From NCBI GenBank assembly GCA_937868025.1, contig CALMLJ010000252.1:1-11129 (forward strand): DNA of 11,129 bases, written 5' to 3'. Source of the DNA: an uncultured Acidimicrobiaceae bacterium (GTDB lineage: Bacteria > Actinomycetota > Acidimicrobiia > Acidimicrobiales > Microtrichaceae). A program made the translations under genes and the position numbers. The notes beneath the pieces were generated by a model that was not told the DNA's origin, did not search any database, and worked only from the letters and a program-made list of their open reading frames with translations. This document shows, piece after piece, positions 3,035 through 4,110 of the stretch. Positions within the stretch are counted from its first letter, which is position 1. The number at the start of each line of letters is the position of its first letter.

Positions 3035-3082
3035 GAAGTGGTGCGCCAGCGCGACGTATCCATCGCGCTCAGGCACCACTTC
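3035..3082. repeat. 48-bp palindromic repeat, left copy
   Basis: Begins GAAGTGGTGC and ends GCACCACTTC, a perfect 10-bp outer stem. Inside is a 3x3 unpaired block (GCC opposite CAG), a 7-bp inner stem (AGCGCGA with TCGCGCT), and an 8-base loop (CGTATCCA). Its reverse complement matches the copy at 4063-4110 at 46 of 48 positions. It lies between the divergent SirB1-like and AbiEi-like genes, ending about 46 bases before the AbiEi-like start. It could be an operator for that protein's winged-helix domain, a terminal repeat of a mobile unit, or a REP-like element. Confidence 0.9.
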
Positions 3083-3128
3083 GCCGCCGAGTGTCTGGAT
3101 GTCGGGGGTACCCACCAGGATGGACGCC

Positions 3129-4076
3129 ATGCCGGTCAACGCCTTGTGCGTTGTGTCCGAGCTCGCAGCCTCTCAACACAACGTCTTCACCCGTTCCCAG
3201 GCTGCTGCCGAAGGAGTCCGCAGGGATCACCTGCGCCGACTGATCATCGCGAGGACGGTGATCGCCATGCCCAGCGGCGGGCTCGTGCTGCTCGCCCAGG
3301 ACGGTCAGCCGTCGTGGCTGCAACGCGTGACCGGTGCCGTGCTCGACCACCCCGGCACATTCGCCTCCCACACGACCGCTGCTCGGCTCGACGGCACCGA
3401 CGGGTACGACGTGTTCGACGAGATCGAGCTGAGTGTGCTCCGGCCTCGGGTCCTCCGCATTCCCGGCGTGACCGTGCACCGTGTGCATGCGCTCGATCGC
3501 TGCGACACCCTCCCGATCGGCGCAGTGCCCTGCACGAACCGGGCCCGCACGCTCTGCGACCTCGGGAATTCGGTCGAGCCGGCGATGGTGCGTCGCGCCC
3601 TCCAGGACGCACTGCGTCGGGGCGCGAACGAGCGGTGGCTCCGGGCAACGGCTGAGCGCCTTCACCGCCCGGGCCAACGCGGGACGGCCGAACTCGTCCG
3701 ACAACTCGACGCCCACGCCGAGCGGGGCAGGGTCCCCGACTCGTGGTTCGAGCAGCTCCTCGACGACTGCCTCGACGACCCCCGGATCGGGCTCGTCGAG
3801 CGGCAGCACGAGTTGCGGGACGACGACAACCGCTTGGTCGCCCGGTTCGATCTCGCCGTGCCGGAGGTGAAGCTCGGGATCGAGGCGCACAGTCGCAAGC
3901 ACCATTTCCTCGAGGAAGAGGAGGCCAGCGACGAACATCGTGATCACGCCGCCGCCGAACTCGGGTGGGACGTGGCGTACCTCGGGTACAGCGCCCTCGA
4001 GTCGCCCTCGTCGGTGGCCCGCCGAATCGCTCGGCGCGTCGAGGTCCGCCGGGCTCAGCTCGGAAGTGGTGCCTGA
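3129..4076 (+). CDS. AbiEi-like protein: N-terminal winged helix plus DUF559/Vsr-like nuclease fold
   Basis: The 315-residue protein resembles the actinobacterial family annotated as type IV toxin-antitoxin AbiEi-domain proteins. Residues 1-50 form a winged-helix module (VVSELAASQHNVFTRSQAAA, then VRRDHLRRLI). Residues 60-150 form the middle domain ending in RARTLCDLGN. The C-terminal part resembles a DUF559/very-short-patch-repair endonuclease fold: WFEQLLDD (207-214), RFDLAVPEVKLGIEAH (239-254) with Asp241 and Glu252 at positions expected for metal ligands, then DVAYLGYSAL. The ATG at 3129 is preferred because AGGA stands eight bases upstream; an in-frame ATG at 3120 is an alternative. There is no AbiEii toxin gene beside it, so it is an orphan. 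Palindromic repeats flank it on both sides, and its last three codons and stop lie inside the right repeat. AbiEi antitoxins are known to bind inverted repeats at their own promoters; nuclease activity here is inferred. Confidence 0.8.
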   Translation: MPVNALCVVSELAASQHNVFTRSQAAAEGVRRDHLRRLIIARTVIAMPSGGLVLLAQDGQPSWLQRVTGAVLDHPGTFASHTTAARLDGTDGYDVFDEIELSVLRPRVLRIPGVTVHRVHALDRCDTLPIGAVPCTNRARTLCDLGNSVEPAMVRRALQDALRRGANERWLRATAERLHRPGQRGTAELVRQLDAHAERGRVPDSWFEQLLDDCLDDPRIGLVERQHELRDDDNRLVARFDLAVPEVKLGIEAHSRKHHFLEEEEASDEHRDHAAAELGWDVAYLGYSALESPSSVARRIARRVEVRRAQLGSGA

Positions 4077-4110
4077 GCGCGATGGATGCGTCGCGCCGGC
4101 GCACCACTTC
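4063..4110. repeat. 48-bp palindromic repeat, right copy (inverted)
   Basis: The same element as 3035-3082 in the opposite orientation, with two substitutions out of 48. Outer arms GAAGTGGTGC and GCACCACTTC are perfect; the inner stem is GCGCGA with TCGCGC around the loop TGGATGCG. The TGA stop of the AbiEi-like gene (4074-4076) lies within the left arm region, so the gene's last three codons are repeat sequence. As RNA it would form a strong hairpin spanning the stop codon and could also protect or end the transcript, though no U-tract follows. It stands 41 bases upstream of the next gene's start. Confidence 0.9.

What the first reader, a model, noticed from the sequence alone, without database searches (positions are those of the whole stretch)
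3035..4110. AbiEi/DUF559-like gene bracketed by two inverted copies of a 48-bp palindrome
The right repeat (4063-4110) is the reverse complement of the left (3035-3082) at 46 of 48 positions, and between them lies exactly one gene, an orphan winged-helix plus DUF559/Vsr-like protein. A palindromic repeat pair around a single DNA-binding, nuclease-fold gene looks like a self-contained unit of about 1.08 kb. It may be a small mobile element, a REP-like repeat with its processing enzyme (by analogy with RAYT/REP pairs), or a TA-type regulator with operators at both ends. AbiEi antitoxins are known to bind inverted repeats, which supports DNA recognition but does not explain a copy at the 3' end.
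Basis: partly seen in the sequence, partly recalled or inferred. Interest (0 to 1): 0.7.

Follow-up and report, generated by a model that had tools for sequence, protein, structure and literature searches.

The report
Nuclease gene with its private palindromes
A bacterial gene for a predicted DNA-cutting protein lies between two copies of a palindrome, and in related bacteria such genes are often bracketed by a palindrome of their own, which in most of the genomes tested also lies scattered between other genes, so the protein likely spreads that palindrome in the way a jumping gene would.

Summary
In detail: two imperfect palindromes (3035-3082, 4063-4110) are inverted copies at 46 of 48 positions and bracket one gene (3120-4076). 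The predicted protein joins an AbiEi-antitoxin-like module to a Vsr/I-Bth0305I-like nuclease. The bracket recurs in the family: by a strict hairpin test 27 of 71 homologous loci carry the same stem on both sides (exchanged flanks 22 of 4970); in a gene control 17 of 53 family genes pass but no independent gene of 303. Most stems are private to one gene. In at least 17 of 22 relative genomes the palindrome also occurs away from the gene (40 listed places in one), typically about 15 nt past gene 3' ends, as REP elements do. Nine of ten genomes tested have no Y1 (HUH) transposase match. In eight relatives the two neighbours of the window unit lie 49-133 nt apart without it, an empty site; dispersed copies show empty sites too. 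I read this as a REPtron-like system run by a Vsr-type nuclease instead of a HUH enzyme. Binding, cutting and copying are inferred. Dispersal in the window's own genome could not be tested: no genome is held.

The parts
3035..4110 (+). whole unit: palindrome - gene - palindrome, 1076 nt; without it 101 nt would separate the two flanking start codons
   Evidence: SirB1-GDPD gap of 49-133 nt without the gene in 8 of 30 fetched relatives
3035..3082 (.). left palindrome, 48 nt, 10-nt outer arms, internal loop, 7-bp inner stem
3120..4076 (+). gene for a 318-aa AbiEi-like / Vsr-like nuclease fusion protein
   Evidence: ORF frame; Pfam; PADLOC AbiEi models down to 1.3e-17; AlphaFold model pLDDT 92.3, pTM 0.86
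3138..3719 (+). AbiEi-antitoxin-like module, residues 7-200 (winged helix plus second domain)
3732..4055 (+). Vsr / EDxHD homing-endonuclease-like domain, residues 205-312; conserved D244, E255, H257 (mostly D in the wider set), H262, D271
4063..4110 (.). right palindrome, inverted copy of the left one at 46 of 48 positions; contains the gene's stop codon
2187..2975 (-). left neighbour, transglutaminase-like / SirB1-like; marks the empty site
   Evidence: PF13369 E 1.2e-30
4152..4922 (+). right neighbour, glycerophosphodiester phosphodiesterase; marks the empty site
   Evidence: PF03009 E 5.6e-47

Best explanation
The window holds a 1076-nt unit, one gene between two inverted copies of a palindrome, and its predicted Vsr-type nuclease likely recognises that palindrome and drives its copying to new places, as a REP/RAYT system does but with an unrelated enzyme. 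Shown here, in relatives: the recurrence of the bracket with mostly different palindromes, the dispersal of those palindromes near gene 3' ends, sites lacking them, conserved candidate catalytic residues, and no Y1 transposase match in most of the genomes tested. Inferred: the AbiEi-like N-terminal part binds the palindrome as a dimer; the Vsr/EDxHD-like C-terminal part nicks or cuts it, perhaps in its extruded hairpin form; repair or replication then copies the palindrome elsewhere, and now and then a pair of copies carries the gene along.
Against: No binding, cutting or movement was observed. No target-site duplication at 76 sites. The strict hairpin test found only 2 of 26 and 5 of 40 (k=9: 1 and 2) in the phylum sample. 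The looser control is less clean: 32 of 53 family genes against 19 of 288 others, 9 of 102 among others of 250-400 aa. Stem similarity does not follow the winged helix alone (rho 0.011). A palindrome found at an orthologous site in G195 has one exact copy there and led to no family gene. At the other dispersed sites relatives often carry different or partial inserts rather than clean empty sites. G028, the genome with tandem doublets, does have Y1 transposases. In G124 two pairs 1.0 and 1.3 kb apart bracket other genes, by eye an enoyl-CoA hydratase and an acyl-CoA dehydrogenase, so chance brackets occur where copies are many. In G001 only the flanking pair exists by exact pattern. The window's palindrome arms occur in 0 of 395 class genomes, and its own genome was not available.
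Confidence: 0.6

Rival explanations
1. The palindromes are binding sites of an AbiEi-like regulator: the upstream copy would repress the gene and dispersed copies would be a regulon or chromosome-organising sites; the nuclease fold would be inactive or used otherwise.
For: AbiEi represses its promoter by binding an 11-bp-arm palindrome with N27 spacer (PMC3985639, passages); the left window palindrome ends 37 nt before the start codon.
Against: Dispersed copies lie just past gene 3' ends, and none of 34 with both neighbours placed lies between divergent genes. A copy at the 3' end of the gene is unexplained. E255 is kept in 27 of 27 bracketed and 43 of 44 other homologues, D244 in 26 of 27 and 42 of 44.
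Confidence: 0.17
2. Solo palindromes are scars: the whole unit moves as a small transposon and recombination between its two palindromes deletes the gene and leaves one palindrome, as with solo LTRs.
For: Left and right copies are direct repeats with identical cores at L013, L020, L033 and L063; SirB1-GDPD pairs without the window unit.
Against: G120 has 40 and G136 23 listed palindrome places, but in each only 1 family match although all first-look candidates, 7 and 6, were scored (distant members may be missed). Dispersed copies lie at 3' ends, while 8 of 19 determinable full units have a divergent upstream neighbour.
Confidence: 0.1
3. The palindromes are REP-like or terminator-like elements spread by something else, and family genes merely tend to sit next to them.
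For: Dispersed copies look like REPs in position; G028 has Y1 transposases; two pairs in G124 bracket other genes.
Against: Gene control 17 of 53 against no independent gene of 303; stems mostly private to each gene; no PF01797 match in 9 of 10 genomes; G073 copies begin GTTTT and end AAAAC, the reverse of an intrinsic terminator.
Confidence: 0.08
4. An anti-phage or anti-plasmid nuclease whose palindromes mark self DNA or act as sensors.
For: AbiEi models of PADLOC hit all 5 family members scanned; a Vsr-type REase domain of this kind is described in multidomain conflict proteins (PMC3710099, passages).
Against: No defence partner among the two window neighbours; a self mark would not explain sites lacking it and the location past 3' ends.
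Confidence: 0.05

Closest known systems
REPtron (RAYT/TnpAREP transposase with REP palindromes)
   Same: one gene bracketed by palindromes that in relatives are also dispersed between genes, near 3' ends; several systems per genome with own repeats; doublets in G028; internal loop in the stem of the window copies, as E. coli REPs have a needed bulge (PMC8266576, passages)
   Different: the enzyme is AbiEi-like plus Vsr-like, not HUH/Y1; no GTAG tag; palindromes are mostly 37-59 nt and differ between most genes
AbiE type IV toxin-antitoxin system (AbiEi antitoxin)
   Different: no AbiEii neighbour in the window; added nuclease domain; palindrome at both ends and dispersed in relatives
EDxHD homing endonuclease I-Bth0305I / Vsr mismatch endonuclease
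   Different: a free-standing gene between two full palindromes, not seen in an intron or intein and with no split target site
TIRtron (RAYT-like gene with terminal inverted repeats unrelated to REPs, PMC3733652, passages)
   Same: single gene between repeats that can be members of a dispersed family
   Different: tyrosine (HUH) transposase, not a Vsr-like nuclease
MITE with its parent insertion sequence
   Same: short palindromic units dispersed with a rarer gene-bearing copy
   Different: no target-site duplication at 76 sites; no recognised transposase domain in the gene

Membership tests
REPtron / RAYT-REP | gene bracketed by copies of a palindrome | tested here: met
   window; 27 of 71 loci
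REPtron / RAYT-REP | palindrome dispersed in intergenic regions of the same genome | tested here: inconclusive
   met in at least 17 of 22 relative genomes (cut listings); not testable for the window's own genome; only the pair in G001 by exact pattern
REPtron / RAYT-REP | enzyme is a HUH Y1 transposase | tested here: not met
   no Y1_Tnp in Pfam scans of the window protein or of 24 bracketed members; best fold matches are AbiEi and Vsr-like
REPtron / RAYT-REP | GTAG (or CGTC) tag at one end of the repeat | tested here: not met
   GTAG near the edge of 1 of 54 flanking palindromes and 0 of 63 copies in five genomes (random places 131 of 4000); CGTC 5 of 54 and 3 of 63 (random 725 of 4000)
AbiE toxin-antitoxin | AbiEi-type antitoxin domain | tested here: met
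AbiE toxin-antitoxin | adjacent AbiEii nucleotidyltransferase toxin | tested here: not met
   window neighbours are Transglut_core2 and GDPD; neighbours of relatives were not scanned
EDxHD / Vsr-like nuclease | Vsr-like fold with conserved acidic and histidine residues | tested here: met
   D244, E255, H257, H262, D271 invariant in 79 aligned sequences
EDxHD / Vsr-like nuclease | DNA cleavage activity | not testable with these tools
   no biochemistry
Classical insertion sequence or MITE | target-site duplication | tested here: not met
   words of 2-10 nt at 76 sites at shuffled level

The most novel reading that the evidence does not exclude
A second, independent way of making REP elements: in Actinomycetota, dedicated AbiEi-Vsr nucleases each create, recognise and spread their own private palindrome family, so that one genome holds several co-existing nuclease-palindrome pairs without any HUH transposase.
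Probability: 0.5. Interest if true: 0.9.

Novelty: categorically new. Interest (0 to 1): 0.82.

Why it matters
How REP palindromes spread is described as poorly understood; the enzyme tied to them in the papers I saw is the HUH-type RAYT/TnpAREP (PMC8266576, passages), and one REP super-family (CGTC) is said to lack a dedicated transposase (PMC3733652, passages). A non-HUH nuclease family with gene-private palindromes would give a second mechanism, a function for a large set of genes now annotated as orphan AbiEi antitoxins or DUF559/Vsr-like proteins (profile matches in 128 of 246 genomes of a phylum sample), and a built-in test of protein-DNA co-evolution, since each gene comes with its likely recognition site.

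Tried and rejected
Own-genome search of the palindrome: not possible, no genome held. Toxin-antitoxin reading: no AbiEii next to the gene in the window. HUH transposase as hidden driver: no PF01797 match in 9 of 10 genomes, that is in 7 of the 8 genomes plus G001 and G195; G028 is the exception, and none of its five matches lies near the palindrome places listed. Target-site duplications: none. Full unit inside the 1-1.8 kb gaps at site 5 relatives (L283-L286): tblastn of 12 family members found no family gene. Reverse prediction from a G195 palindrome to a family gene: failed. Window palindrome arms in other genomes: 0 of 395 by exact arms. Young duplicate units: 11 locus pairs of at least 78% DNA identity over 400 nt among 137 loci, six looked at; of these only L208/L211 are 82% alike over 1009 nt in one genome (G507) with different surroundings, but no palindrome edge is visible there. 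Literature: nine searches in the open PMC library and passages of six papers showed no report of this pairing; a 2025 REP survey (PMC12306157, passages) lists REPs for an Acidimicrobium but its main text holds none of the words RAYT, transposase or nuclease. Subscription papers are not covered.

Full report
What is there. The window contains a divergent pair, a SirB1-like/transglutaminase-like gene (2187-2975, -) and a GDPD gene (4152-4922, +). Between them lies a 1076-nt unit: palindrome 3035-3082, gene 3120-4076, palindrome 4063-4110. The two palindromes are inverted copies at 46 of 48 positions and fold far better than shuffled sequence. The gene's stop codon lies within the right palindrome.

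The bracket recurs in the family. The single relative from the genome-contig scan (L001, an Actinomycetes MAG, 41% identity) is bracketed by two palindromes of a wholly different sequence, GTTACTGGG...CCCAGTAAC, which by exact pattern occur nowhere else in that genome. A protein search in 198 genomes of its class found matches in 97. I tested 71 loci: the window, L001, 29 loci given (L004 repeats L001 and was dropped) and 40 more taken from the listing. A first test on 31 of them gave 11, exchanged flanks 0 of 930 (k=9). On all 71 the same stem of 8 or more nt occurs as a hairpin on both sides at 27 (k=9: 23; k=10: 14; among the 60 loci with both flanks long enough 20, 17 and 11); exchanging flanks between loci gives 22, 9 and 7 of 4970. 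In the same stretches 17 of 53 evaluable family genes but 1 of 303 other genes pass at k=8, and the one is an antisense ORF on a family gene; 12 of the 71 family genes were not recovered as gene models there. Units measure 1016-1205 nt, and left and right copies can be in direct or inverted order. Stems are mostly private, but some are shared by related proteins, e.g. L045 and L047 in one genome (63% identity).

Wider sample. A profile of 24 bracketed proteins found matches in 128 of 246 genomes of the phylum. Of its 30 loci I left out 4 that repeat genes of the first set; the strict hairpin test gave 2 of 26 there and 5 of 40 further loci that I picked from the listing (exchanged flanks 0 of 650 and 3 of 1560 at k=8; at k=9 1 and 2). 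Some have shorter or interrupted arms, e.g. L181/L233. An exact repeat of 13 nt or more shared by both flanks occurs at 43 of 66, 13 of 26 and 11 of 40 loci of the three sets, against 6, 2 and 3 of 150 exchanged pairs. By alignment of the two 300-nt flanks, 52 of 63, 18 of 24 and 17 of 38 loci exceed the 98th percentile of exchanged flanks. With gene-model boundaries the same measure gives 32 of 53 family genes against 19 of 288 others, 9 of 102 among others of 250-400 aa, so the loose measure has a background of about 7-9%.

Palindromes are dispersed. Each genome's own palindrome, searched in eight genomes, has these distinct listed places, flanking pair included: G124 33, G132 27, G043 11, G028 9, G073 8, G169 8, G077 6, G101 5 (listing cut). 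In 14 more genomes the listing, also cut, shows G120 40, G136 23, G192 7, G039 7, G507 7, G175 5, G004 4, and one place away from the gene in G097 and in G037; for G140, G183, G067, G049 and G143 it shows only places at the gene. That makes at least 17 of 22. Copies in G124, G043 and G073 end at the hairpin with unrelated surroundings, while G028 has tandem doublets. Of 43 dispersed copies that I fetched from five genomes (tandem doublets merged) 20 lie between convergent genes, 14 between codirectional, none between divergent, 5 inside gene models and 4 are undetermined; the nearest gene 3' end is a median 15.5 nt away (neighbour pairs in 40 other fetched loci: 74 convergent, 79 divergent, 192 codirectional; gene models are mine). 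That is the position described for REPs (PMC3733652, passages). Full units differ: 8 of 19 with a determinable upstream neighbour, the window among them, have a divergent one, so their left palindrome is not a 3'-end element.

Mobility. Of 30 fetched relatives of the GDPD region, 8 also have the SirB1 gene in divergent order, with start codons 49-133 nt apart; none of the 30 loci has an AbiEi match; the window has 1177 nt, 101 without the unit. These are distant relatives (GDPD 54-69% identical in the eight), so gain in the window is the simpler reading but loss elsewhere is not excluded. For dispersed copies of G073, joined flanks of six were searched in 31 genomes. The palindrome is lacking at site 3 in G049, G159 and G195, at site 4 in G065, and at site 5 in G045 and G065; other relatives carry different, partial or longer inserts at sites 1, 2, 4, 5 and 6. 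At site 2, G195 has at the same spot GTTTTGGCGTGAGTT...AACTCACGCCAAAAC where G073 has GTTTTGGCGTCGATA...TATCGACGCCAAAAC: same outer arm, different inner stem. No target-site duplication was found at 76 sites.

Who moves them. The Y1 transposase family, the known partner of REPs, has no match in nine of ten genomes and five in G028 (4 over the cut-off). No GTAG tag accompanies the palindromes (1 of 54 and 0 of 63). Stem similarity rises with protein identity (rho 0.207, 3 of 2000 permutations; among 18 protein pairs of 45% identity or more, 7 have related arms, against 6 of 333 others), though not with the winged helix alone (rho 0.011, 866 of 2000). An earlier whole-palindrome measure gave rho 0.25, 132 of 5000.

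Mechanism. AbiEi binds a palindrome with 11-bp arms and a 27-nt spacer (PMC3985639, passages), and the EDxHD enzyme I-Bth0305I dimerises on a target of nearly 60 bp (PMC3943268, passages). The window palindrome, 10-nt arms with 28 nt between, fits both. I infer that the protein binds its palindrome through the AbiEi-like part and nicks or cuts it with the Vsr-like part, and that repair or replication spreads the palindrome and sometimes the whole unit. None of these steps has been observed. The internal loop of the stem recalls the bulge that E. coli REPs need for activity (PMC8266576, passages).

Standing. It works like a REPtron but fails its defining enzyme test, so it is not filed as one. 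It has the AbiEi fold but no AbiEii neighbour in the window, so it is not filed as an AbiE system. Nine literature searches in the open library found no description of the pairing.

Noticed in passing
L018 and L139-L142 (genome G028): Palindromes come as tandem doublets about 61-80 nt apart, like BIMEs, both at the family gene and at dispersed sites; this genome also has Y1 transposases.
   Followed up: partly
L031 and L039: Orthologous units 91% alike differ in tandem copy number of a palindromic unit of about 60 nt, suggesting recent copy-number change.
   Followed up: no
[not shown]
   Followed up: no
L134 site in G073 and orthologous spot in L281 (G195): The same intergenic spot holds palindromes with the same outer arm but unrelated inner stems in two relatives, as if one spot were re-colonised or the inner stem replaced as a block.
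   Followed up: partly
L283-L286: At the orthologous spot of site 5, four relatives carry about 1-1.8 kb of extra DNA without a family gene; content not identified.
   Followed up: no
genomes G507, G480, G425, G568: Nine family matches each in the phylum search, which is the number of candidates it scored per genome, so this orphan gene family may be still more expanded there.
   Followed up: no
window 362-2102: A likely signal-peptidase-like ORF runs up to the 3' end of an acyl-CoA dehydrogenase-like gene on the other strand (read by eye from the translations, no domain search).
   Followed up: no
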